Shown here piece by piece: positions 1,468-55,400 of a stretch of 64,000 nt of DNA (position 1 is the stretch's first letter; each line of letters starts with the position of its first letter). The notes beneath the pieces are model-generated. The model was not told where the DNA came from. It did not search any database and worked only from the letters and a program-made list of their open reading frames with translations. Made by a program: the position numbers and the translations under genes. The stretch comes from Arbacia lixula. Its lineage: Eukaryota > Echinodermata > Echinoidea > Arbacioida > Arbaciidae. The stretch is from the NCBI GenBank assembly GCA_963669155.1, contig OZ022578.1, positions 8,803,230-8,867,229 on the forward strand. The letters run 5' to 3'.

Positions 1468-3235
1468 CTGTAGGAAGATCAACATGGGGTAGGAAGTCTC
1501 ATTAGCACAAAGGAAACATTTTGTCAACAGCTACAAAGGGGACTACTCAGGGTAATGCTTAATCCCACTTGAGCTTTCAATGAGAGCTGCACAAGGAATT
1601 ACCCCTTCTTTTTTTTACCAGATAACTGTTAAAAAGAAATACTGTACATATATTTTCCAATAAACGTTTTTACCATGACTGAATGATGACCAAGGTCTTA
1701 AAAACTAACTAATTATTAATTTGATTACACTGTGTTCACCTCACACACAGCATGTGAACAGACAGTAGATTAGAATAACATATGTTTTAAGGTGAATCAT
1801 ACAGGATTTGTAGAAAAATAGTCTTGCATATAGCAGTTATCAAGCGATATCACCTTGCGATACCGATATCTGATAGATTACTCTTGGGACGTATACTTCC
1901 GGTAAGAGTTTCGCACAAATTAAATTCACGCAATAACTCACAGAATCTGTTATTTCGACCCTCATAAACCTCGTAATATTAATGAAAGGGTTGTTACATG
2001 GACGAAGGACTTGAAAAAAATACCACCAATCACTCTCGGCCATGTTTTTGTCTACCTCAACATTGATTGTGGATGGACTAATGAAAGAATGAAAAGAGAC
2101 AAGCAAGACAATGGCTATAGAATTTTCATGGACCGGAAGTTAATATCCCAAGAAACAAAGGTAAAAAAATTAGAGCGCCACACACGTTCAGATTCGAAGA
2201 GCTATATGCGATAGGAAGAATTTGTATGTACCAAGTAAACTTTCAAGGACTACATATCATAAAACAAATGATAACTGTAAAAGACAAGATGTGTGCACTT
2301 ACAGTGGCTTTCCTCATCTGTCCTATCACAGACATGAAGTAGTCGTAGGAGATGCAGCCATTCTGCTCTGGGCCGAGGGGGCCAGTCAGGGTACCCTGTG
2401 TGGCTGCAGCAGTAGACGCACCAACTGCCATCTCCACCCAGTCCAAGAAGTGCTGCAGAGACCCTCTCTGACTGGCTAGGCCCAGCACCAGCTCGCAGGC
2501 CACCCGCTTCCCCGCTAGGTCAGCGCCTGAGGTGGGCATCGTGACAGACTTGAGGAATGATGTGACCTGCTTCAGACACTCCGTCCCCAGCGGTGGGATC
2601 TTGCTTTCGTTGGCCAGGGACAGCGGCGGCAAGGACACCAGGACCTCCCTGGCCGTCTGCAGGACGTCGTTACAGATGTGTGGTGCCCCCGATGGCGGGG
2701 GCTGCATCCAGTTCTGCCGCAGGAGGGCAAAGAGCAGACTGAGGCTGGTCCTGACCCCCATCTCAATGAGTGCGTCGGTTCCAAACCGAGCCCACTGCCC
2801 AGACGACTTCTCCTCCACCGTGCGGGATTGTGCCTGCTGCAGCTTCTGCTGCTGCTTGACCTTCTCAAAGTCATGGAACTTGTTGGAGACGGCGTGGAAG
2901 ATGCGTCTCAGCACCAGGAGCCGCTTGCGAAGTGTGGCGGAGAACGGAGAGTCGGAGCAGATGGCCCTGGCTAGCCCCAGCTGGGTGCCCAGCAGCAGCT
3001 CCAGGAAGTGCTCCTGCTCCTCGGTGGAGGCTGGTTCCCGCTCCAAGTCGGGTAGCTGTGGGCCCTGCAGGGGCAGCGAGTGACGGGGTGCCCCCAGCAC
3101 CTCCTTATTGGTGGTGAGGCGGGTGTACAGCTCCAGCACACCCTCCCTGCTAGCCACCTTGGCCCAGTCCTCGGCCACCCATGAGGCATTCATGTGCTCC
3201 ATCCATTTTAGCTTCACTGGGAGGTTGGTGGCCAT
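1372..3235 (-). CDS. HERC1: HERC1-like giant E3 ubiquitin ligase, N-terminal part (2 coding exons, gene continues left of window)
   Basis: Two exons join in phase 0 to give residues 1-343 of a HERC1 orthologue. HERC1 proteins are about 4,800 residues long, with two RCC1-like domains, SPRY and WD40 regions and a C-terminal HECT ubiquitin-ligase domain. They act in membrane traffic and as E3 ligases. Recognition rests on N-terminal signatures shared with vertebrate HERC1: VKLKWMEHMNASW at the start, LRKRLLVLRRIFHA, TDALIEMGVRTSLSLLFALL, SLPPLSLANESKIPPLG, and GLCPLYQAALCLMEE in exon 2. The ATG at 3235 is preferred because it lies in a strong Kozak context (ACCGCCATGG) and matches the family start; the frame extends upstream only through a TTG. 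No RCC1 repeats are visible yet, as expected this far N-terminal. The gene points away from the DXO-like gene to its right. Confidence 0.93.
1468..2302 (-). other. HERC1 intron between coding exons 1 and 2
   Basis: AT-rich intron with GT and AG ends on the minus strand. I see no repeat, RNA gene or coding exon in it. Confidence 0.8.
2303..3235 (-). CDS. HERC1: HERC1 coding exon 1
   Basis: This exon is 933 bp, exactly 311 codons. It ends at an ACT codon followed by the donor GTAAGT (plus strand 2297-2302). The acceptor CTCCAG lies just upstream, so the exon begins near 3278 with about 43 bases of 5' UTR; at least one non-coding exon must therefore lie further right. The exon is much more GC-rich than its surroundings. 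A long open frame on the opposite strand here is a composition shadow. Confidence 0.93.
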
Positions 3236-3278
3236 GGCGGTCAATGAGTGATTGCTATTGGCCTACTGACCAGCCAAC

Positions 3279-7620: not shown

Positions 7621-8089
7621 TATATAGGTTGTGGGCTTGGTGAAATGAAAATGTGGAAAACTGAAATTTTAAAACAGTGCTTCACATTCTGAATAAAAAG
7701 CTACAGCATAACAAATCTAAATAGGCCTATCTGCGATTTGTGCAATATTTATTTTTTGGGTGTTATGTACTCATGATCATGTCACATTCCTCTTTTTTCT
7801 GTTTTCTGTTTGTTTGTTTTTACAAAGTTACATCCCTTGATTTTATGATTTCATTTATGACTTCATTTCAGTTGAAACTGATTTTAATCATTTTTCAAAA
7901 GTTTCAAGTTTTTTAACACCTAGTATAAATGGTAACCCCAAAACTTGTTCGACGAGCAACCACTAATACATTCAAAGTGCATTTCACCCATTAAATCTGA
8001 ATATAGATGAATGGTGTCACTACGCAGTTCGAGGGAAAGTAAGTGTTGTGTTTAATCGGATGGGTCTGTTTCTTCACGACAGCATGGTC

Positions 8090-10395
8090 TTATCATGGAT
8101 GGACTGCGCTTGGATAGACTTCCTTTGATCTATGATGACCACCGCCTCATAAGAATTCAAGTTATTCAGGTGTTTCAAACCATACGCTGTATTTCTAATT
8201 AGGCAGTGCCTTCCTCAGAATAACAAAAGAAAATCTGGTTTGTTATGTCAACCGTTCAGCCTTCGCTGGTAGCTCATCTTATTACACACAATGGAAATTA
8301 GATTGGGGGTGGGCGAAGGGAAATTTTGATAAAATTGTAGAAAGAATTTGGTCCGTAACTTTTTCGGACATCTCCCCACATGAAATCGAGGTTTCCATGC
8401 CAACACTCAATAAACGATTTACAAGATATTATATGATTGCCCAATGTGCGATATGGAGGCATTTCTCTGACATGTTTTCGACAGTATACTCGATTCTTCC
8501 AGAAAAAAACACACACACACACAAAGCAACAATATAATCTGAAATTCACATAATCGTATCATACAATGTTCTACTACTGCACATGCACTTCAGTACATGA
8601 AGTGGCTCTGAAATCTGCGCATGCAGAATATAATGTTCCTCTAAATGCATCCGAAATTTGTCTTGCATATTTAGCGGCGGACCTCCCTCGACCAAAGAAC
8701 CAAACGCGTCAAATATTCTAGTGCTATCAATGAACGCAACTGGTGTTGGAATAAAATACTCTTCGTACCGACTCCAGTTCTAACACCTTCCTGACGACAG
8801 GCAGTACTAGTGTGCTCATAACTTTTGTCTCCCGTGTGGTTTAGAACTTTGTTCCGCGCACTAGCTAGGTAGCGTGGATCACACTTTCCCAGTTCTAGGC
8901 GTGCGACTAGGTGTTTAACAAAAGCTGTTTACACTTTTGAAAATGATACAAAATAAGCCAAGCTCGAATCAAGTTAAAAGTGACACATCATTAAGTCATA
9001 TGATGTCAAATTGTTTTTCGAAGCACGTTTTCGAGACATTTCATCAATTGCTTTTCTTGTAATAATCTTTGAATATTGAATGAGATATTTACTTTTGGAC
9101 AGATTTAGACTGTGTATTAGATGATTCAGAAAACATAATGACCATTGTGTATCACACCTGTCATTTCACTAGCAACTACCATCACAGTGTCATTATTAAT
9201 GCATGATGCTTCTGGTATTGCAAAGACGTTGTTGGTTGACACGTGTAAAATATGCGCAATTGCCATTGTTGTGTTCTGAATTAATTATGTGGTAAGCACA
9301 CATTTTTAGATCCAGATAAAGTGAAGAATATTTACAGGTCCCGATTATTACTAAAATAATCATTGACAAAATGTCACGAAAACTGCTTCGAAAAAGAGAG
9401 GCCCTCTCTGACAGTGTGTCAATTTGAGCATGATTCGAGTTGTAACTTATTTTTAACCAGTTTCAAAAGTGTCAAAAGTGTTTTTTAACACGAAGTAGTA
9501 AGCCGTTTTTGTAATGTATTTACAACTTTATTTCTTAGTTCGCAGGAACGACTTAACATTCACCTGTATCCAGTGATTCAGTTTCAATAAAACATTTTGG
9601 TAATATACTCACAACTTTTCCCCTAACTGCCTGGAAGTCGCTTATGAACGTTGTCAGCACTTACCATGGATATGTTATGGAAGGATATAAAACAACATTC
9701 TTTCTTTAAGCCCATGCGTGGCACCGCCTAAAAAATTATGTGGTCTCAGCATGCGTTTTTCAGGTGTTTTAAAAATAACGAACAGGATTGCCTAGCAACG
9801 GTTTCTCAGAGAGAACAAAAGAAATGTAGAGTCTTATTTCGCTTGTCCACTTCTGTTGGATTGCATCAATTTCTCAGCTGCACGCAAATTCACGCAAACT
9901 CTGTTAAAGAAAATAAACAGCTTAATATATAAGTTTGATAATGATTGAATCCGACATTTAATTTCCGGAAATCTCCGGAAAGTGAAGAAATTTGTTAATT
10001 ATGTAAGTAAGAATATTATGTTATATCTCCGTTATGTGTGCATAATTCGACAATTATTAAGTAGAAAAACGAATACAGGATCTTTAGTGGTGTTGCCCTT
10101 AACTTTCGTGAAAATTACAAAAAAAATGTATTGATGATAAACACAGCTTCGAGAAACAAAACAGGGAATTAAAGATATTGCTTTCCAAGTTGACGGCAGC
10201 AAAATGACGGTGCCGCGCATTCAAAGCATTGCAGTGATTGTGAATGTTTTTGACATTCATTAGCACGCTTTATAGTATCCATACAGATGTTTGAATATAT
10301 TATGCTTGAGTTGTCCCTCCTTCCTAACACATCCCTGGTTACAATAACGCCGTGCCAATACACACACTGTTCAGCGCCTAACTCAATTATTAGCA
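8090..10395 (+). repeat. Left arm of a large inverted repeat
   Basis: This segment is the diverged reverse complement of about 10975-12540. Matching landmarks include AGGCAGTGCCTTCCTCAGAA (8204) against the 12400 region, GCGGCGGACCTCCCTCGACC (8673) against GATCCGCCGCC (11920), and CATAATATATTCAAACATCT of the right arm against 10290 here. The left arm carries about 850 extra bases (roughly 8790-9640) with no counterpart in the right arm. No transposase or reverse transcriptase is recognisable. Confidence 0.75.
8298..8549 (-). other. Short open frame in left inverted-repeat arm
   Basis: 83 codons from a GTG. It is paired with a similar frame in the right arm (12060-12314). Shared blocks include REMPPYRT, SCKSFIEC, VRKS and KISLR. 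There is no ATG start and no known domain, so it is kept only as a possible remnant of an element's protein. Confidence 0.25.
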
Positions 10396-10525: not shown

Positions 10526-10833
10526 ATGCAGAATACGAAGTCGAAGATGGGCTTCCACGACCACATTCATCTCGGCAACTTCTCTCTCGATGAAAATCGC
10601 AATTACTTCGATGACCACAGCAGTCGAAGATTCTTCGTTCATCCTGGGTTCAAACCGAAATTCAACCTCCTTGATGGTCTTGCGGACTTTGTCGATCGTG
10701 ATCGTTCGCATGGCCATGGGACAGACGACGTTGAGATCAAATCACTCGATGGCCTTCTGAGATGGATGCGTGACCATGCAACTGAGCTGGAACGGAAGGG
10801 AATCATTAACCTGGAACCAGATGGGGTGAAAAG
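10526..10833 (+). CDS. DXO-like exon 1
   Basis: Starts at the first ATG of the frame (10526); upstream the frame opens only through non-ATG codons. It encodes residues 1-102 plus two bases of codon 103 and contains the N-terminal FSLDENR landmark and the GLLRWM helix. Donor GTATGA follows 10833. The exon is isolated between the inverted-repeat arms, about 2.7 kb from exon 2. An additional upstream exon cannot be excluded. Confidence 0.85.
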
Positions 10834-13800
10834 GTATGACTCACGTTTCTGTTATGTCCTTGGTACCTAGGCTAAGGTCAGGTTGGACTATGCAGCCCTG
10901 TCCCAACCTGTCTTTAGGCCTAACTTTAAATTTACATTCGATTGGTTAGTCAAAAAATATAATTATGATCAAGAATGTCTAATAATAGAGCCTGGAATAC
11001 CATTTTCGTTGTGTAGATCTTCGCACGATTTATGCACGTCATACGTTATGGTGACCCCAACCAGGGAGGTGTTACGAAGGAGTAAAAACTCGAGCATAAT
11101 ATATTCAAACATCTGTATGGGTTCTAAAGCGTGCTCATGAATGCCAAAAGCATTCCATAATCATGACAATGCTTTGATGTTCCATGTGCCGTGCCGACAT
11201 TTAGCTGATGTCAACTTGAAAAGAAATTTCTTTAATTTCCCATTTGTCTGTAGACGTTTTGTTTTTGACAAATTTGTTTGCAAACTTTAAGGAAGTTAAC
11301 GGCAGATAATGACAGATCCTTTACTCTGCTTTTGTTTCGAAAAGTATTGAGGAATCATTAAAAATCGGACATATAAGCTATTTTTATTACTTACAAAATT
11401 GGCCAATTTCTTCACTTTCCGACAACTTGTGCATCTGGGGGATTCAACCACTCTCAAAATGATATATTAAGCTGTGTATTATCATTAACGGCGTTTGTGT
11501 GTGTTTGAGTGAAACAGAGATATTTCACTTGAAAAACTTGTTTATTTGTGTTTGCTGATACCTGTTATGCTCATGGAAGTATTAACAGAACGGGACAAGC
11601 GAAATGAGACTGTAAATTTCTTTTGTCCTCTCCGAGAAGCCGTTGCCACACAATCATATTCATAATTGTTCAAACACCTGAACAGCACCTGTTGAGAACA
11701 CATAACTTTTCAGCGGCTTGGCACATGGGTTCAAAGGAAGAAAGTTGCTTCATATCCTTCCATAACACGTCCCTGCCCCAACCAAGGCTTGTCCGACGTT
11801 TGTCCGAGCAGAGAGGTGTAAGGAATGGAGTCAGCACGAAGTGTAATTTATTCCGACAGCAGTCGCGTGCATTGATATCACAATGGAATATTTGACGCGT
11901 TTGGCTTTTTGATCGAGGGAGATCCGCCGCCAAACAAGCAAGACAAATGTAGGATGCATTTTGAGGAATATATATTCTGTATGCGCAGAAGATTTCAGAA
12001 CCACTTCATGAACTGAAGTGCATGTGCAGTAGTATTACATGTTATAAAGATACGATTGTGTGAATTTCAGATTGTATTGTTTCTTCGTTTTTGTGATAAA
12101 AGGAGAATACTGTAGAAAACATACCAGAGAAATGCCTCCATATCGCACATTTCCGAATCATATTTCCTTAAAAATATCTTGTAAATCGTTTATTGAATGT
12201 TTCATCTTTCATGGAAACAACCTCAATTTCGTGTGCGGAGGTGTCCGAAAAAGTAACAGATCAAATTCTTTCTACATTTTTTTCAAAATTTCCCTTCGCT
12301 CACCCCAAAACTAATTCACAGTGCGTGATGTAAAAAGATCAGCTACGAGCTCCCAGCGAAGGCTGAACGGTTGACGTACTTCTCAAAACAGATTTTCTTT
12401 TGTTATTCAGAGAAGGCACTACCTAATTAGAAATACAGCTAATTGTTTAAAACACCTGAATGTCTTGAATTTTTATGAGGCGGCGGACCTCATAGATCAA
12501 AGCAAGTCTATCCGAGCGCAGTCCATCCATGATAGGTCCATGGTCCGAGTAGCAACAAAGTTCGATAGATCAGTGTGCGTTCAACCATTTGAAACCGAAT
12601 GACGAAATACAGGTGAATGTTACAACGCGCATAATTTATGCAATGTGAACACATTACGAAAATGGCTTACTTATAACTTTACTTAGACATAAAATGTCAG
12701 TTAGACCATGATAATCCATAAAAGACAACTAAGCTCCCGGAGTGTGCCTCATTCATATCAGCGTGTAACTTTAGGATTATTCTCATTGTTGTAAAATTGT
12801 AAGGTTAATGATAAACGTCTAACATAGTTAGGTCTAGACTAGGTCTATCTAACGTTATTTAGCTAAATACATCTGGAATAATAGGAATCAAATCTCATCG
12901 GAAAGGAAATCTAAGAAATCCAAAATTAAGACGATTTATTCTGAAAGCATGTCAATTTTAACTCTTCAGTTCTCGCGGCACAGCATGTGCTCCATATAAG
13001 TAAGAACTGCTGGGCTATTCTTTCGGACTAGCACTGTTCAAACATGCTGAATATAGCTCGGAGAGCGAGTGAGAAGCATGGTGAGAGTGAGAACATGATA
13101 CAAGTATATGGGAATTTCAGAGTAGGCCTTTGCTTTCGTAGAAGTCAGTTACTTCCATATTCCTTTATTCTTCTTCACCTTCATCTTCCATTTCTTGTAC
13201 GTCGGCTTTTGCTTCTTCTCCTTTTTTTTTTTTTTTAAATTCATCTTCAATTTCTTCTACTGCTTCTTTTTCTTTTGCTCCTTCTTCTTCTTTTTCTTTT
13301 TCTTCTTTTTCTTTTTCTTCTTCTTCTTCTTCTTCTTCTTTTTCTTCTTCTTCTCCTTCTTCTGATTACCATTGTTAAAAAGGTTTCAAAGGACACATTT
13401 GTTCAGGGAAACAACTAATGTGGTCGTTATAGGTAGGTGGTCCTTCTAAACGAGTGGTCACTGAATCATATTTTACCGTGGTCTTATTCTTTGTCACTCG
13501 TTACCGCCAGCCTCTCCGTGAAGTTTGTGACCAGACGCGGCGCCCTTCATGACCTCTTCAAAGCTGCGCACCTGAACGACCGGTGCGAATGTTACGTAAC
13601 CCTGTACCGAGGGACTTACTACTTGGAGCAGCTCGACATCCGGGACCAGAGGGTGAACCCCAGAGACCCGGACGGCATCCAGATGTACAGCGGGAAGAAG
13701 TTTGCACAGTACTGTACAAGTGGTACGAATCATCGTCTTATTACAAGTAGTAAACATCATTGATGGACTTGTAAAATTGTCTAGATTTCTTCAGTTGTTT

Positions 13801-16218
13801 CACATGTACATACACAACTTGCATCCATTATTTTAAGCATCACACCACAAAATGGTCGGCTAGATGCTGATGAGAAATGTATGAGAAATAGCGTAGAAGT
13901 AGAAGTAATACAAGTATGTAATAGTAGGCATAAACAAAATAATTAGAATAGTGCATCGTATAAGAAGAGGTGTTTCTGGGCCATGTTGCATATAGGTTTT
14001 CAATTATTGTAACATACCCTCAATGATAATTACCGTGGCAACATACAATGAGCTCTCATGATTGCACCTGTTGCCATGGTAGTTACCATTGATGGTAAGT
14101 TAAAATAATTGAAAACCTATATGCAACATTGGACAGGTATAAAAACGGAAAAACAATCTTTTTGAAATGTCTAAATACAATCTCAGAAATGTTTACGTTC
14201 TCCAATGATAAACTTTAAAATGAAATACTCGTTCTTATGACAAGTGCGTCTTCACTTTTAAATCATTCCACCACCTACACGCGTTTGTTGTGCAGCCGAC
14301 GGCGAGTGGCCTAATGCGACCGCACCGATTGACGACAACCGATCGTACGAGGCGGTGATGGCGACGCGATGCGGTGACGTTCCCGTCCTTTTCAGCGTCG
14401 AGGTGCACGCCGAGGTCCGACACAAGCCACAACCGATGAAGAGGAACGGTCCGATGGTCATCCGACGTCATTCTACTCATCACAACTACGTCAATATCAG
14501 GACGACTAGGGAGTTTAACGGAGTAACGGATATTCAGCAGAGCAAGGCTTTCTTCAGGTGTCGAAAACTTTTCAATCAGTTTTTTTTCGGAAAAATCATA
14601 CAAACATTTTTGTTTTCGTCTAATCCATATTCTTTCTATCGTGTTAAAAGAATGTGGAAAAATCATAACCATTGATATATTTGTCGGTGATGAATTCCCT
14701 TTCCTCTACCTATTGAGAGTTCAATACTCGATTCGTCATCTATGATCACAAATGTTCACGTGTTTTTTTTTCTTCAAATCAAGTTAGTAATGTACCTCTG
14801 AATTTCACCCCGTACTACCGCCGGCAGGAAGAAGTTGTTCCAGTTCTGGTCTCAGAACCACATCGCCGGCATCCCTCGAGTCATCCTCGGCTGGCGGGAC
14901 GAACAGAGTCACGTGATCACCAGGGTGGAGACCTACGTTACGGAAGACATTCCCAGCATCCCACTGGTAAAGATTGCTTGACGAATTCTAATTGATTCCG
15001 ATAAGTATGAATTGAATTCAATTTGATTTATTGACATCATCATCGGGATAAAGGATATTTTGTCACAAACAATCACGCTGATTTATAATGATTACATTTC
15101 TAGTTTAGATACAATTTCATACATTTCAAGTTTCAAAAGACATCCTTATAAAATCTGTGTGAACATAAATATGTACTTTTATTGTTTAATTCATCACCCA
15201 CGCGTTGTGATAATTTGTAACTTTTTGCAGTTCCAACAAATAGTAAGATAATGAAAGAAAAATATCAAAGGGAACCTCAGTACCTTAGTTGCTCTTAAGA
15301 TAAAAAAAAAAAAAAATCTAGTAACTGGGCAAAACACTTTAAGGCAAATCGGACAACTAGCTAATAAGATGGTTATGCATGTTTTATTGATACAAATATT
15401 GATATTTTGGAGACAAATTAGCAAGCTCTGCCATGAGGCTGTGATGTCATAAATTTGATTATTTTATCTGCAGTGCACATGGGACCCCGTCAGGTACTAC
15501 ACTATGATGCAAAATCTCTTCGCAGACATTGCTCAACATGTCACCGATGACGACGCCTGGTATGTAAAACCCCGCCCACCCCTCCATACACACACATACA
15601 CACACACCCCCTTTTCTCATCTTCCTTCTCCAATTTTATGGTAATTTTCCCTTCATCTTCTTTTCCGTTTTGAATGATGATAGCTGGAAATATTAGTTGT
15701 TTCCACTCCCCCATTTCTTTCTTTATCTTTTGTTCTGCCTCTCTATTCCCCTTCTCCCTCTTCCTTTTCCATACTTAATGTTTCCTGTCACCTTCGCCCA
15801 AATTGTTTTTCCCTTCCACTATGTACACTCCTAGATCTTCTCAACTACTAGTACTTCTCATATTAATTTATCCTCATTCTATTTCCTCTTTCCATTGACC
15901 CATATCCTTCTTCGACACCTCGCCTCCACCTGCATCTCCTCCTGCTCCTCCAAGTTCTCCTCCATCGTCCCTCCTTTTCCTCTCTCCACCCCTCCCCCCC
16001 CCCCCTCCTCCTCCTCTCTCGTATAACCCCATCTATATAGTGTGGTGTACCATCTCGTGTTGGAGCAAACGGAGCACGCCCCCTACCGAGATATGATGCT
16101 GAAGCTGAGCGAGAGACGGTTCAAAGTGGAGGCGAAGAAGACCGACAATCGTTTGAGAATCGTAAAAGACTGGTTCATCCGTGATGTTCTCAAGGCCACA
16201 GCAGCCTCATTACCATGA
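10526..16218 (+). CDS. DXO/Rai1-family (Dom3Z) protein with degenerate active site; complete 6-exon gene
   Basis: Six exons join in frame to 394 codons plus stop, against 396 aa in human DXO: 10526-10833, 13511-13722, 14296-14557, 14828-14966, 15474-15559 and 16041-16218. DXO/Rai1 enzymes remove incomplete or NAD caps from RNA 5' ends and degrade the RNA; they bind metals through conserved Glu/Asp residues. Family landmarks are clear: LGNFSLDENR (16-25), FVTRRG (108-113), MYSGKKFAQY (161-170), VLFSVEVHA (204-212), YVNIRTTREF (238-247), RKKLFQFWSQNHIAGIPRVI (261-280) and WDPVRYYTMMQNLF (310-323). The motif Arg (R112) and one Glu (E209) remain. The other acidic/basic active-site positions are changed: the Glu of G-x-x-x-E is Ala168, the Asp of E-x-D is His211, and the E-x-K pair is Asn240/Arg242. 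Decapping and nuclease activity are therefore unlikely (inference); RNA binding or scaffolding may remain. An ATTAAA poly(A) signal lies at 16430. Confidence 0.88.
10975..12540 (-). repeat. Right arm of the large inverted repeat (inside intron 1 of the DXO-like gene)
   Basis: Reverse-complement partner of 8090-10395. Between the arms lies a loop of about 600 bases that holds only exon 1 of the DXO-like gene and its upstream sequence. Divergence between the arms is considerable (small indels and many substitutions), so the duplication is old. Confidence 0.75.
12060..12314 (+). other. Short open frame in right inverted-repeat arm
   Basis: 84-codon partner of the frame at 8298-8549. The length differences between the two are all multiples of three. 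Function is unknown and it may be non-coding. Confidence 0.25.
13205..13366 (+). repeat. Pyrimidine tract, TTC/TTTTC repeats
   Basis: About 160 bases of nearly pure T and C, mainly TTC triplets, in intron 1 of the DXO-like gene about 150 bases before exon 2. Confidence 0.9.
13511..13722 (+). CDS. DXO-like exon 2
   Basis: Acceptor TACCGCCAG precedes 13511 and donor GTACGA follows 13722. It completes codon 103 (Ser) and runs to phase 1. It holds FVTRRG (family V-T-W-R-G; the Trp is Arg here) and GKKFAQY, where the family has Glu in place of Ala168. Confidence 0.88.
13980..14133. mobile_element. Short palindromic MITE (GTTGCATATAGG family), copy 1
   Basis: About 154 bp. The left end CATGTTGCATATAGGTTTTC is inverted as GAAAACCTATATGCAACAT on the right. 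The centre has paired GGCAACA/TGTTGCC blocks around GAGCTC. It lies in intron 2 of the DXO-like gene. A second copy is at 59866. Confidence 0.8.
14296..14557 (+). CDS. DXO-like exon 3 (degenerate metal-binding motifs)
   Basis: Acceptor TTGTTGTGCAG precedes 14296 and donor GTGTCG follows 14557. It contains FSVEVH (family G-E-V-D) and YVNIRT (family Y-V-E-L-K-T). The frame is maintained and the splice phases match, so this is not an obvious pseudogene. Confidence 0.88.
14828..14966 (+). CDS. DXO-like exon 4
   Basis: Acceptor GCCGGCAG precedes and donor GTAAAG follows. It encodes residues 261-307, including KLFQFWSQNHIAGIPRVILG, equivalent to the human KLLKWWAQSFLPGVPNVVAG segment. Confidence 0.9.
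15008..15430 (-). mobile_element. Possible LINE 3' UTR remnant
   Basis: Begins with GAATTGAATTCAATTTGATT on the plus strand, which read on the minus strand is an AATAAATCAAATTGAATTC tail like the 3' ends of several invertebrate LINEs. No coding part is seen. Intron 4 of the DXO-like gene. Confidence 0.3.
15474..15559 (+). CDS. DXO-like exon 5
   Basis: Acceptor TTATCTGCAG precedes and donor GTATGT follows. Residues 308-335, CTWDPVRYYTMMQNLF onward, match the family W-x-P-x-x-C-x-x-F helix. Phase 2 at the end. Confidence 0.85.
15590..16030 (+). repeat. Pyrimidine-rich intron 5 of the DXO-like gene
   Basis: Over about 430 bases the plus strand is strongly T/C-biased, with a run of Cs near 15990-16005 and TCC repeats. 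It leads straight to the exon 6 acceptor. Confidence 0.8.
16041..16218 (+). CDS. DXO-like exon 6 with stop
   Basis: Acceptor ATCTATATAG precedes 16041. It encodes residues 336-394, rich in Lys/Arg, and ends at TGA 16216-16218. Confidence 0.85.
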
Positions 16219-16429: not shown

Positions 16430-16435
16430 ATTAAA
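16430..16435 (+). terminator. Candidate poly(A) signal of the DXO-like gene
   Basis: ATTAAA, the commonest variant of AATAAA, 212 bases after the stop codon. Confidence 0.45.
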
Positions 16436-48830: not shown

Positions 48831-49496
48831 CTAGACATCGACATTATTCAACTGGTTACTCAGCTCATCTGCTTCCTTCAGATCGTGTTCTGAGACACTC
48901 TTGGCGGGGCCTCCATTCTCTGCCTTCTCCTCCTCAATCTTATCCCTGCTGTGTGAGTTCCTCATGCCTCCAGCCTTGCCATTCTTGGCACCGGCGTCCT
49001 TGATCCTCATGCTACGCCCTGAGGTGATCATCTCCCCGAAGCCCTCTTGGTGGGCGAAGGCATATCCAGACCGGACCGAGCCGGGACGCGACTTAGCGCT
49101 GCCCAGGCGCGACCCTGGCCTGGCGCTGCCACCCCGGCTGATAGTGCTGCGGGTGCGCATCCCCTTCAGCTGGACGCTTGTTCCCGCCTTGGCGCGCCGG
49201 GACTCCTTACGCTGCAGGATGCGGACCTGATCCGAGAGCGTCGGCTTGACGTCCATCGACAGTGACCGTGTGCCGAGGATGGGGAAGAGCAGGATGACGA
49301 CGACAAGGAGGATGGTGAACCAGAAGGTCGGCTGGATGCACATGAAGAAGGTGACACCAACGTAGGTGAATGTGGCTCGCAGGAAGGCATACAGAGGCTC
49401 AGAGTACAGCAGCAGGGCATACAGCCAGTACAGCAAGATACTGCCCCAGATGCATATATGGCTGAAGATGGTCCAGTATGACGTATCAATGGCAAT
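48831..49496 (-). CDS. ATP8B-like last exon (TM segments, regulatory tail, stop)
   Basis: 221 codons and TAG (48831-48833). Starts [20 protein letters not shown], with three hydrophobic segments. A tail of about 140 residues follows. It carries RPGSR, RLGSAK and RPGSVR (possible basophilic-kinase sites), then [20 protein letters not shown] and an acidic C-terminus. In ATP8B and related P4-ATPases this tail is autoinhibitory (family knowledge). Confidence 0.94.
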   Translation of the reverse strand: MAIDTSYWTIFSHICIWGSILLYWLYALLLYSEPLYAFLRATFTYVGVTFFMCIQPTFWFTILLVVVILLFPILGTRSLSMDVKPTLSDQVRILQRKESRRAKAGTSVQLKGMRTRSTISRGGSARPGSRLGSAKSRPGSVRSGYAFAHQEGFGEMITSGRSMRIKDAGAKNGKAGGMRNSHSRDKIEEEKAENGGPAKSVSEHDLKEADELSNQLNNVDV

Positions 49497-52400
49497 CTGG
49501 TAGCACGGGAAACAATGAAACATATATTGACCACGCTTCTTTCCAAGCCCAATGTTATAAAACTTTGTGTTACATTATACTACCTGAGAACAATCATTCG
49601 TTCACCAGGGCTCTTTCTTATTTTTATGTGCAGGAGCTCTTGATCTCCTTCACAATGTACAGTACTTAGCATCTAGGGATTTCACACCGGGTTTCACACC
49701 ATCAAGCTTCCGCTCACACTGAAATTTCCTTTGTTTTCTAATATCTCTCAATACTTTACAGTAATACTCAGTATCCACGTATTCACAATATGAACTGATT
49801 TACACATGTATGACTCATTTTACTGGATGTATTGAAAATCAAGCAGGAAAATTAACAAATCATTCAATTTAAAATCAGGGTTGGGTTGCCGTTCAAACTT
49901 GGGAATGTCAATTACATTTGTGTCTTGAGCTATATCAACACATCCTGCACTACGATCCCACATATTACATGCCAGGGCCTGATTCAGGCTTTAGCAATGA
50001 GGTTTCACTTGTGTGATGCATGTGGAAGCATTGATCCTCCTTCTTTTGTTCTGTTCTCATCAGTTGATAGTTGTTGCCATTTTGGTTTATAGCCTGATGA
50101 GCATTTGTTTGAGTAATCTATGTTCATGTTATTATGTATTGTATTATTTGTACACGGGGCCTCCAGGGAGAACAGTGCAAGCTCACTGATAGGGCTACCC
50201 TGTTTAAAAAAAAGACTCTTAAAAGAAACAAATATATGAATTTAGCAGCAGAAACTGGTTAAAAACTGACCTTGAAGTTGACGATGTGGACGAGGATGGT
50301 GGCCACAATGCAGCCAAAGAGGAACTGGGTGTGGATGGGCTGGCCACCAGGAGCCAGGTTCTCAAACAAGGCACCTGCCCAACCAAGCAGCAAGGGAGAG
50401 AGATAGACACAACAGAGGAGTTACAATACTTCATTTTGTCTCATGTTGCTCAGTTTTATTATTGTAAAGCAATATTTGAATATTGTTTTAACATGATTAG
50501 GTTTTCTGGCTTTGTGAACCCTTGTCTAGTTTGGATGTCAAAATTTGCCATGGAACTGCAGTAACCAAAGGCATGTGGCTTAATTGTGTTCCATAAGGCA
50601 TTTGAAGGTTATTCATAGCCTTTTCGTCTATTGTCTGAACAGCAGATTGTATAGGTGTCATGCTGCTTACAATCTTGGTGGAAAAAAACAAGCCCACATA
50701 TATGTGGGCTCAGTGGATTCTCAGTGGAGGTGTAAAAACAATATCAAAGCCAGTTATAGAATTAAAAAAAAGGCCCTTGTATTACAAATTAAAATTCAGA
50801 AAATAAAAACTTTGAAATCTTTCAATTTTCAAGGTGAATGAGAAGATCATGCCATAGAACATGCTCCTCAGAAACACTGACCACTGAGGATTCTTCTGTC
50901 AAAAAATTATTTTCTTTTCTTTGATTTCTCTTATGGAATGTGTGGAATGAAGAACAAGGCCAGGGAGGTGACTGTGCCGTGTAACAGACTCCTCAGAAAC
51001 ACCGGCCAGTTAAAAAAAAAGAATCTTCAAACCATAAAATTCAGACAAATATATACTTTTCAATCTTTGATTTCTCTTACCGTATGGAATGAAGAACAAG
51101 GCCAGTGAGGTGACTGTGCCGTGTAACAGACTTCTCAGAAACACTGACCAGTTAAAGAAACGATTCTTCTGACCAGGCTTGTAGAGAGCAGGAAACCGGA
51201 TACTCATGTCATCATTCACATCCTGTGACCAAAGCAAAAAGAGTTTATCATCACTATTCCCGTCTCGTAAATCTTCACTAATAAAGAGAAGAAACACTAT
51301 TGTACAGAAATTGTTGATGTAGAACAAATAAACACATCTATATGTTTGTGTGTTTTTGTTTGCAGCTGTTATAAATACAAAGTCATTTCATTAATAGAAT
51401 TGTTGGATTCAAACATTTTATGTGAGCAGAATTTTTACGTTTAAACCCTATGCAATGTCTTATAAAGAGTTGAGATTGATCTGAATTGATCGCAAGTCCA
51501 ATCCCGTATGTCAAATGTACAGTTACTATTTAAATGAGATGCAAGTCAAATTGCAATCAATCATAATTCTTTACAAGACAGGGCCCTAGATCTTTTAATC
51601 TCTTCGTGAGTAGAATTTGGGGATTTATAGGCTAGGTTAAATCTAGCCCTTCTTTGCAAATGTGGGCCACTGTTTGGTGATTATAGCAGGCTACAGACTG
51701 ACCTGGTCAAACATGCCGAGGGAGATGACTGGGAGTGATGTGAAGACTGTGTTGTAGCCAGTGATGAACCACTGATCGTAGACCGTCTGGACGAGGGAAA
51801 GCAAAAAGCACACAGGAATGGTAATTCTTAAGTTGCATGAATTCCTTCAAATGTGCTTACTTGTTTATTAACACACATTTTAATGGAAGCATACAAAGCT
51901 GGATACCTGAATGAATTAGTCAGGATTTAGTACTCTGTTCAGAATTTCAGCCCTCAAGATTCATCTCTCCAAGTGAGACACCATGGCCCCACCATTGTCT
52001 AAATATTCATTAACAAATTGTTTTTTATAGAATGAATCATTATTGTACTGCCCACCTTCCATCCTTGGTGTGAATAACAAAGGGAAGCTGTGGTTTACAT
52101 CCTCTTTGAGAATACAAGCCTTAGAGATTATCATCTATTGGTACCTAAATCATCATAGCCGCAACCCCGCAAAAAAATCAAATCAGGGCTCTGTTGCCTA
52201 AAACTAAAAGTTACCATTGATAGCAGAGTTACCATTAATGATAACTGCTGTCAATGGTAACTTTCATGGTAACACCGCTCTGCAACCGGTTAAATTCAAG
52301 GTTTCCATAGAAGTTGCCATTGGTAGCAAAGTTACTATCAATGGTAAATTCTATGCAACTGGGCAGAGAAATAACTTTTCCTTTCATAGACAAAACGATT

Positions 52401-55400
52401 TTCAAAAACAACAATTGTACACGTCCATACTCAGTCTGTGGATCATTATTAAGTTAATCAGGGCTTCGCACCCATGACTCACCATGGCAGAGTAGCCGCA
52501 GAAGAAGGCAAACCAGAAATGGCAGACAGTGAAGGCAAAGTTTTTGTAGAAGAAGTAGGACAGGAACTTGCACATGCGGTAGTAGGACCAGCGTCCGTGG
52601 ACCAGGAGGAGGCGCTCCAGGTAGCGGAACTGGGCGAAGGAGAAGTCGCTAGAGAGCACTGCCTGCATCCCTTCCTGACCACTGATCCCTACTCCAATGT
52701 GAGCAGCTGCAGCGTGAGGCACAAACAGATGGAGAATAAGACATATATATTTTAATGTTATGTTAATGCCGATTTCATAAATAGCCCTTATGATGCATTA
52801 TCATTCTAGAAGTAAAGTTGGCTTTGATGGGAAAGATAGGGGGGTAAGGAAGCAGGGGAAGAAGGAGATATTTCCTGGATAATCAGCCTGACTGACTGGT
52901 AAGGGGCTTGTCTACCATAACATGGAAGCTCATAAAAAGAGCTCAGGACAGAGATTTGTGGCACTCCTGATTGCCTTCACCACAGAGAGTGGCACTTGGA
53001 CAGATGATGAAACAATCTGAAGTTACCATGTCTCCACGTAAATAGAAGCAGGTGACTTACTTTTGATCATGCTGACATCATTGGCTCCATCCCCAATGGC
53101 CAGAGTGACCGCACTGCGATGAGTCTTGACCAGGTCAACGACCTGTGCCTTCTGGAGAGGAGTGACCCTGCAGCAGATGACCGTCTTGCAGTAGCACGCA
53201 GCCTCCAGGAACTCCAGCTCAATCTCAGGGTCCAGCAGGTGAGCCTGTAGGGATGGACATGAAGGACAATGGGGGCAGGGGTCAAGATATAGCATAGGGA
53301 GAGCATTGTGGTCAAGTAGTGAGCGCTCTTGACTATTGCACACAGTGGAACACCACCGTAATAAAGTAATTTTATACCATTATATAATGCGCAATAATCT
53401 AAATTTTCTTTAATTTTACTGATTAAATTGCCATTAAAAAGATTGTAGTGTTCTATTTTACCGTTTCAAAATGTGTACAAAATCCTACTATTTTGATTGA
53501 AACTTTGAGCTAAAAAGTAAATTTTGATGATGATATAACTCACCAAGGCGGCGCCAGTAACGACCATGGCGAAGCTGTAGATGTCGCCGAGCTCATCGAG
53601 GTCCTTGCTCTGGTAGGAGACATCATCATCGTTGAGCTGGTCCTTGTCCTTGATGCCCATGACGTCTTTGATCTTGACCAGTGCCCCCTCCAGCTCCTCC
53701 CTGGCGCCGTCCCGGTCCTTGGACGAGATGACGAAGATCTCGTTGAGGTCGTCGGTGAGCAGGCGGCAGGAGTAGCCAATGTTGATGGCTGTCTCCTGTT
53801 TGTCACCTGTCAGCACCCAGAGCTTGATGTTGGCCTGTTAGTGAGGGGGGAGTGGAGGTGGAGGGAGAAAGTGAAGCATTATTATGACAGTCAAGGAGTG
53901 GTATGCTCAACATGAACTTAAGTTTGACTGAAGTCCCCTACAATCCATAACTGAGAGTATCCACTATTGGCGCACTTTCTGCAGACTTCCAACTGACTTA
54001 GGTAAGACTTCAGTTTCGTTCAGAATACTACCTAAGGCAAAAGGCAACTATAGCATTTCATGACATACACTCTAAGCTTGCTTTCATTTAAAAGGTAAGA
54101 GGTCAAGATTACCGTCCGTAATCAGAGCAGAACTGTGTTTTTCTCACAACTGGGTCCCAATTTTGTTTAATTTTTGAAGTTTATCACTTTGGAACAAGTC
54201 CATTTTACTCTCACAAAGGGTCAAAATCTTCAGTGATAAGATTGTACAGGCTTTGTTTGATGTTTCACGTCTCAAACATTTTCAATCTAAGAGCTTTAGA
54301 AAACATGGGGGTGGGATTTAATTTTATTTAAAACAAAATGTTTGGATGTAGTTTTTATGTGTTTGAGGTTTTATCCCCAATTGCTTGTGAATTCATTTTC
54401 AAGCGCTGGTCAGAGAGAGCTCAGGCAAGGCCTCACCTTGTGGAGATTCTCGATGGTCTGCGGCACGCCATCCTGCAGCTTGTCCTCGATGGCGGTGGCT
54501 CCAAGGAGAGTCATATCCTGCTCCATCTCTTCATACACAGCGTCTAGAGCAGCTTCTCTGTCAGTCAACGCCACCCTACAAACACACACAGCAAAGGTAG
54601 GGTTAAAGACAGGGTGGCCCATTTACAAAAGTCATACAACTCTCCAGGGATCAGCAGGATAATCTAACAAGAGCATGTATAAAATCTCACCATTATAGCG
54701 TCACGAGCATTTTCAAGAATAAAGAAAACAATTCTTGTTTACGTTTGAAATACAGCGAACATAGTCAAGATTCATAATCATTTTGTCCCTATTAGCGTAC
54801 GATGCATTGACTGCATGCACTCTGAAGCGCACCATTCCTCCAGACTATAGGTTTTGGATGACCATCACAAAATCTCATCAATATCACTAAAACTTTGCTT
54901 AAAGTCAGTTTCCAGTTCTATTATTAGGACGAAAGTAAGTTCTAATACAGTATCCTCCTCCAATTTCCATGTTTTTAGAATGTTTTATTTATTTGACCTG
55001 CAAAAAGGATACCCTGTCTAAGACCTTCTCAGGACCATCCATTGATAGCTACATGGGCCCCAATGATGCACTTCACTGAATGTTTCTTATTATTGTGCAC
55101 CATGCATGAACAACACACTTCATTTATTTACCTTGAATATATGGGGAAATTTTTCAGAGCTAGTGTTTCAGATTTTTCAACCAAAATAATAACAAAAATA
55201 ATTACAGGTCCACTAGTCCTTTCCACTTCCACCCCTCAACTTAAAAAAAAATTAATAAAAACCCTTCATCCCTGTAATGAGTTAAAGGAATGGTAAACTT
55301 ACGATGCTTCATGGTGTTTCTTGCGCCACTCTAGGTAGGTATGCTGATCAATCTCCTTCATGGCCAGACACAGGGTCCGTAGACCTTCGTTGGCAAACTC

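What the first reader, a model, noticed from the sequence alone, without database searches (positions are those of the whole stretch)
10526..16218. DXO/Rai1-family protein with its active site replaced: a Cutoff-like pseudoenzyme?
The six exons rebuild a full-length DXO-fold protein with clean splice sites and no stops. Of the residues that bind metal and catalyse in human DXO, the Glu in the M-Y-x-G-x-x-F-E motif is Ala168, the Asp of E-V-D is His211, and the Glu and Lys of E-L-K are Asn240 and Arg242. The motif Arg (112) and one Glu (209) remain. In Drosophila, Cutoff is a Rai1/DXO relative that lost these residues and works with Rhino at piRNA clusters. An independent inactive DXO in another phylum would be of interest for small-RNA or transcription-termination biology. 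Loss of activity and any nuclear role are inference.
Basis: partly seen in the sequence, partly recalled or inferred. Interest (0 to 1): 0.75.

Follow-up and report, generated by a model that had tools for sequence, protein, structure and literature searches.

The report
Metal-less DXO relative in an echinoderm
An echinoderm carries, besides a normal copy of the RNA-decapping enzyme DXO, a small family of related genes whose metal-binding cutting site has been replaced; the one found here still keeps residues that grip the RNA's 5' end, so it may hold capped RNA ends rather than cut them.

Summary
Six exons (window 10526-16218, +) give an unbroken 394-residue RAI1/DXO protein in which A168, H211, N240 and R242 replace mouse DXO E192, D236, E253 and K255; R112 and E209 remain. 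The genome is an echinoderm's by mitochondrial code and gene order. It also holds a DXO with intact catalytic motifs and three more degenerate paralogs (two a 95%-identical tandem pair), all with the same intron phases. The four degenerate proteins group together against mouse DXO plus the intact gene and share E-(V/I)-H-A-E in place of E-V-D, so the Asp-to-His change is old. In the window protein the losses fall on metal/catalytic residues, while the side chains named in the structure papers' passages for the cap pyrophosphate (R132, Q280) and RNA phosphates (motif V Lys, motif VI Arg) are kept. Best reading: a non-cutting binder of RNA 5' ends, working like Drosophila Cutoff; no evidence of kinship to it, of piRNA function or nuclear location. 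A rewired metal site is not excluded.

The parts
10526..10833 (+). exon 1 of the degenerate DXO/RAI1 gene (ATG at 10526; a second in-frame ATG, M8, has the better start context by eye)
13511..13722 (+). exon 2: motif I (R111-R112-G113) and motif II (G164..F167-A168; mouse E192 is Ala)
14296..14557 (+). exon 3: motif III E209-V-H211-A-E213 (mouse D236 is His), motif IV N240-I-R242 (mouse E253 and K255 are Asn and Arg)
14828..14966 (+). exon 4: motif V (K263, Q270) and motif VI (G282, R284), kept
15474..15559 (+). exon 5
16041..16218 (+). exon 6 with a C-terminal tail that the other degenerate paralogs share and that is shorter in the intact DXO; stop at 16216-16218
16430..16435 (+). possible poly(A) signal ATTAAA
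   Evidence: motif only

Best explanation
A diverged, catalytically dead DXO/RAI1 paralog that binds RNA 5' ends without cutting them. Shown by sequence: the gene structure; loss of three of the four acidic residues named as metal ligands in DXO (E192, D236, E253; E234 stays as E209) and exchange of the catalytic lysine for Arg; retention of motif I Arg (R112) and the following Gly, both motif V residues (K263, Q270) and motif VI (G282, R284), which in DXO/Rai1 structures contact the cap pyrophosphate or the RNA backbone. Inferred: basic side chains (H211, R242, R111) stand in for the metal charge, so the pocket can hold a 5' phosphate or pyrophosphate cap but not hydrolyse it. The protein would then shield or present 5' ends (for example NAD-capped, triphosphorylated or incompletely capped RNA), or compete with the intact DXO. 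It would work like Cutoff as proposed in flies; membership of a Cutoff lineage or pathway is not claimed.
For: Gene model and family. DXO with intact motifs FE / GEVD / IELK in the same genome, mouse DXO at 6e-85. Metal ligands and phosphate contacts: passages of PMC13213243 (mouse DXO) and PMC4513879 (CaRai1). In the window protein 7 of 7 non-metal motif residues scored (I Arg; II Gly, Phe; V Lys, Gln; VI Gly, Arg) are kept against 1 of 5 metal/catalytic ones (one-sided Fisher 0.010; grouping chosen after seeing the data), while it keeps 54 of 146 columns where mouse and intact DXO agree. The four degenerate proteins group 100/100 against mouse DXO plus the intact gene (six rows, label-shuffle control weak, 63 of 500 as low). 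Simulated drift without selection of the window coding sequence gave 11.8 stops on average (minimum 3 of 200 runs) by 36% protein identity and 7.4 (minimum 1 of 200) by 60%; the real frame has none.
Against: The C1 and C5 paralogs lack the motif V Gln (Asp or Ala), C1 lacks the motif I Arg (His), C5a/b lack the motif II segment, so cap gripping cannot be the function of the whole group. Mouse W131 and R95 lie near the sugar of a UDP-GlcNAc cap: W131 is R111 here, R95 was not traced. In the recent pair C5a/C5b, 18 of 19 differing codons are nonsynonymous (P of at most 1 synonymous 0.065), and exons are not significantly less diverged than flanks (21/1032 vs 113/3938, P 0.16, one unalignable flank row dropped): no sign of purifying selection there. 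The LF..E.HAE stretch is the best-conserved nonapeptide of the group, but a maximum that high arises in 16% of shuffles.
Confidence: 0.55

Rival explanations
1. Rewired, still active nuclease: E209, H211 and E213, each two residues apart at and after motif III, form a new metal site, with R242 (K217 in C1) as the basic residue.
For: E, H, A and E are identical in all four degenerate paralogs, though C1 and C5 are only 31-37% identical to the window protein; D-to-H and C-to-A are 2 of only 4 changes shared by window, C1 and C5b among 129 columns where mouse and intact DXO agree.
Against: Motif II and IV acids are gone (window Ala and Asn, C1 Arg and Lys, C5 deleted and Asn), which takes away other ligands of both metals described for mouse DXO. 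In CaRai1 the motif III Asp already lies at the strand/loop border, so E213 may not face the pocket. The clustering of conserved columns there is not beyond chance (0.16), and E209 with L205 belongs to the ancestral core.
Confidence: 0.15
2. Cutoff-like germline factor: a nuclear dead DXO that protects or licenses small-RNA precursor transcripts in the gonad.
For: Cutoff is described as a Rai1 homolog that lacks key catalytic residues and is thought to bind or protect 5' ends (passages of PMC11125864; PMC4053829). Same kind of loss here.
Against: No expression, localisation or partner evidence; Deadlock, a partner of Cutoff, is reported as restricted to drosophilids (passage of PMC6179187). 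Cutoff's sequence was not compared.
Confidence: 0.1
3. Fast-evolving RNA-surveillance or antiviral family, as with the DXO homologues of C. elegans around EOL-1, in which this copy is a regulator or decoy.
For: EOL-1 is one of nine (PMC12247656) or ten (PMC7735679) C. elegans DXO homologues, six of them tandemly clustered, and is part of pathogen and mitochondrial-stress responses (passages). Here too the family is expanded, diverged and partly tandem, and the recent pair changes mostly at amino-acid sites.
Against: EOL-1 is described as an active enzyme; suppressor alleles include a change at its E253 equivalent, so the likeness is to a family habit, not to this protein. No immune expression data.
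Confidence: 0.15
4. Decaying relic: redundant copies drifting toward pseudogenes.
For: Active-site residues differ among paralogs; C5a/C5b show 18 nonsynonymous against 1 synonymous codon difference and no significant exon constraint.
Against: Window and C1 genes keep six intact exons over a tree path of 1.77 changes per column; neutral simulation predicts many stops; 7 of 7 non-metal motif residues scored are kept.
Confidence: 0.05

Closest known systems
DXO / Dom3Z (mouse, PDB 4j7l and others)
   Same: RAI1-family sequence over residues 15-351; motifs I, V, VI kept
   Different: 27% identity over 320 columns; E192, D236, E253, K255 replaced; longer C-terminal tail
Cutoff (Drosophila)
   Same: RAI1/DXO relative said to lack key catalytic residues (passages)
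   Different: No sequence comparison made; no Rhino/Deadlock partner, germline or piRNA evidence here; independent origin seems likely but is untested
EOL-1 and other C. elegans DXO homologues
   Same: Lineage-specific expansion of DXO with tandem copies (passages)
   Different: EOL-1 is described as an active decapping exonuclease with an E253 equivalent; here the residue is Asn
Fungal Rai1
   Same: Same family and motifs
   Different: Weaker similarity: 1.5e-6 or worse to chains named Rai1, 2.6e-8 and 2.8e-7 to two chains named only Decapping nuclease; binding to Rat1/XRN2 not assessed

Membership tests
DXO/RAI1 sequence family (PF08652) | Match over the curated cut-off across the domain | tested here: met
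   165.7 bits vs cut-off 26.8, residues 15-351
Active DXO/Rai1 decapping enzymes | Motif I Arg | tested here: met
   R112; motif list from PMC4513879 passage
Active DXO/Rai1 decapping enzymes | Motif II acidic residue (E192) | tested here: not met
   A168
Active DXO/Rai1 decapping enzymes | Motif III E-h-D | tested here: not met
   E209-V-H211
Active DXO/Rai1 decapping enzymes | Motif IV E-h-K | tested here: not met
   N240-I-R242
Active DXO/Rai1 decapping enzymes | Motifs V (K..Q) and VI (G-h-R) | tested here: met
   K263, Q270; G282, R284 with Trp between
Active DXO/Rai1 decapping enzymes | Decapping/exonuclease activity | not testable with these tools
   needs protein
Cutoff (works like) | RAI1 relative lacking catalytic residues | tested here: met
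   Cutoff's own state taken from review passages
Cutoff (member) | Sequence orthology to Cutoff | not tested
   no Cutoff sequence was at hand
Cutoff (member) | Complex with Rhino and Deadlock at piRNA clusters in germ cells | not testable with these tools
   needs expression and interaction data

The most novel reading that the evidence does not exclude
An old group of DXO paralogs in an echinoderm lost the DXO metal site once (shared E-x-H-A-E), kept it changed, and then split roles; the window member became a 5'-end reader that keeps the cap-pyrophosphate grip while basic side chains replace the metals, a Cutoff-like solution reached independently in a deuterostome and possibly used in small-RNA or antiviral defence.
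Probability: 0.22. Interest if true: 0.8.

Novelty: new variant of a known kind. Interest (0 to 1): 0.58.

Why it matters
Dead relatives of RNA-decapping enzymes are known to me mainly from one case, Cutoff in flies (recalled; reviews). A second case, with the intact enzyme and three sister copies in the same genome, would let one ask whether a decapping fold turns repeatedly into a 5'-end reader, and what it reads (NAD caps, triphosphates, incomplete caps). It gives a concrete test: binding without cutting, compared with the intact DXO of the same animal.

Tried and rejected
Alternative exon carrying the catalytic residues: searched with four DXO-family proteins and narrow motif patterns; none found. 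Sequencing error: rejected, since several separate codons differ and D-to-H is shared with paralogs on other contigs. Processed retrocopy: rejected, five introns in the same phases as the intact DXO. Viral source: one scan of viral contigs with the four-paralog alignment gave 46 pattern hits, none confirmed by tblastn; the prokaryote collection was not scanned. Conservation of the altered motif as proof of new function: the shuffle test did not support it (0.16). dN/dS of the tandem pair (343 codons, NG86 dN 0.0238, dS 0.0092; YN00 failed) does not show constraint. In one search the Fisher test used a wrong total of flanking bases (3538); corrected to 3938, where one misaligned flank row (exon 3 upstream, 163 of 342 differing) was dropped; with it kept the P is 1.5e-9. 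Stops reported inside two C1 matches lie beyond the exon ends modelled here. Literature: in the listings (titles and starts of abstracts) I saw no paper on echinoderm DXO or on DXO pseudoenzymes other than Cutoff; the held library lacks most subscription journals, and Pane 2011 was not held.

Full report
What is there. Pfam finds only RAI1 at E up to 0.001 (2.2e-48, residues 15-351). By sequence the closest solved proteins are DXO/Dom3Z chains (about 1e-21). The residue claims are right to the number: A168, E209, H211, N240, R242 and R112. No alternative exon with catalytic residues was found in the locus.

Which organism. The window lies on contig C3 of a 607-Mb, 590-contig genome. Of the two invertebrate mitochondrial codes tried on its cox1 (tables 5 and 9), table 9 (AAA Asn, ATA Ile) restores conserved stretches that I recognise (recalled), and open frames that I recognise as nad4L, cox2 and atp8 follow cox1. 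That is the echinoderm code and order (recalled). No species name is claimed.

The family in this genome. Two searches of the same genome, with PF08652 (10 matches) and with the window protein (13 matches, 6 of them its own exons), fall into five genes, whose exons I modelled by hand: a DXO on C4 (21578363-21585513), a degenerate copy on C1 (31265893-31293166), two tandem degenerate copies on C5 (3648558-3626213 and 3679510-3663276, minus strand), and the window gene. Each has six exons with phases 2,1,2,0,2 (last exons of C5a and C1 settled). Such searches give lower bounds, and an alignment search was not accepted. The C4 protein matches mouse DXO at 6e-85 with motifs FE, GEVD, IELK, K..Q and G-F-R present. 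The degenerate ones read, for motif II / III / IV / V / VI: window A / E-V-H / N-I-R / K..Q / G-W-R; C1 R / E-V-H / K-V-K / K..D / G-N-R; C5a and C5b segment missing / E-I-H / N-F-R / R..A / G-W-R; the motif I Arg is His in C1. Identities of the window protein: 29% to the intact DXO, 30-36% to the other degenerate copies (C1 then without its last exon; 31-37%).

Age and relationship. A six-row tree puts the four degenerate proteins on one side, mouse DXO and the intact gene on the other, 100/100; the order of the three degenerate lineages is unresolved, and the label-shuffle control is weak with so few rows (63 of 500 as low). Of 129 columns where mouse and intact DXO agree and window, C1 and C5b all have a letter, 20 are kept in all three, 4 are changed in the same way (R73S, N201D, D211H, C212A in window numbering) and 105 otherwise. 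So D-to-H happened once before the lineages split, or was fixed more than once. Six rows cannot date this against other animals.

What the changes mean. In mouse DXO the first metal is held by D236, E253 and the L254 carbonyl, the second by E234 or E192; R132, Q280 and the amides of G133 and E234 hold the cap pyrophosphate; K255 may help activate water (passages of PMC13213243). In CaRai1 the motif V Lys and motif VI Arg hold RNA backbone phosphates, as does an Arg that is not conserved in the family (passages of PMC4513879). The window protein lost E192, D236 and E253 and exchanged K255 for Arg, but keeps the equivalents of R132, G133, Q280, E234, the motif V Lys and the motif VI Arg. Of 12 motif positions scored, 7 of 7 non-metal ones are kept and 1 of 5 metal/catalytic ones; the grouping was made after seeing the data (Fisher 0.010). 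Baseline: it keeps 54 of 146 columns in which mouse and intact DXO agree. By the same count C1 keeps 4 of 7 and 2 of 5, C5 3 of 7 and 1 of 5 (read).

Is it under selection? Random drift of the window coding sequence to 36% protein identity gave 11.8 stops on average (minimum 3 of 200 runs); to 60% identity 7.4 (minimum 1 of 200). None are present, so most of its divergence took place under coding constraint. Against this, the young C5 pair has 18 nonsynonymous and 1 synonymous codon differences in 343 codons, NG86 dN 0.0238 and dS 0.0092, P 0.065 for so few synonymous ones, and its exons are not significantly less diverged than flanks (21/1032 vs 113/3938, P 0.16 with one unalignable flank row dropped, 1.5e-9 with it kept). 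That fits relaxed or diversifying change in that pair.

The conserved altered motif. LF-x-x-E-x-H-A-E is the top nonapeptide among the three degenerate lineages (6 of 9 invariant), yet a maximum of 6 or more occurs in 16% of shuffles. It suggests, and does not prove, that the altered motif has a use. A new metal site at E209, H211 and E213 is a real rival, though in CaRai1 the motif III Asp already sits at the strand/loop border.

Known systems. Cutoff is described as a Rai1 homolog lacking key catalytic residues, thought to bind or protect 5' ends of piRNA precursors (passages of PMC11125864; PMC4053829). Deadlock is said to be restricted to drosophilids (passage of PMC6179187). EOL-1 of C. 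elegans is one of nine or ten DXO homologues, six in tandem clusters, linked to pathogen response and antiviral RNAi; one of its loss-of-function alleles hits the E253 equivalent (passages of PMC12247656; PMC7735679). The window protein works, if our inference holds, like Cutoff; no test of membership beyond the missing residues was possible.

Verdict. Observation confirmed, interpretation partly supported and widened: a group of degenerate DXO paralogs beside a DXO with intact motifs, with the window member the one that keeps the 5'-end grip. Function remains inferred.

Noticed in passing
window 8083-10340 and 11059-12620: Inverted copies of a dispersed repeat flank exon 1 of the gene (arm pieces up to 130 nt). 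A 301-base piece (11830-12130) has 2186 candidate places in the genome, of which the 40 scored (its own place among them) are all at 99-100% identity: a recently active repeat. Related copies lie near exon 1 of the C1 and C5 paralogs; none was found in the 18-kb C4 stretch.
   Followed up: partly
window 48831-53837, minus strand: Exons of a phospholipid-transporting P4-type ATPase: PF16212 in 3 of the 10 window frames scanned, P-type ATPase motifs in two further frames by eye.
   Followed up: no
window 2243-3262, minus strand: A 339-aa open frame with no Pfam match at 0.001; looks coding by eye.
   Followed up: no
window 13164-13376: Long pyrimidine (CTT-rich) tract in intron 1, about 130 bases before exon 2.
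   Followed up: no
C5 stretches L014-L019, between exons 5 and 6 of the tandem copies: Open frames that look like retroelement pieces lie in the long last intron (by eye).
   Followed up: no
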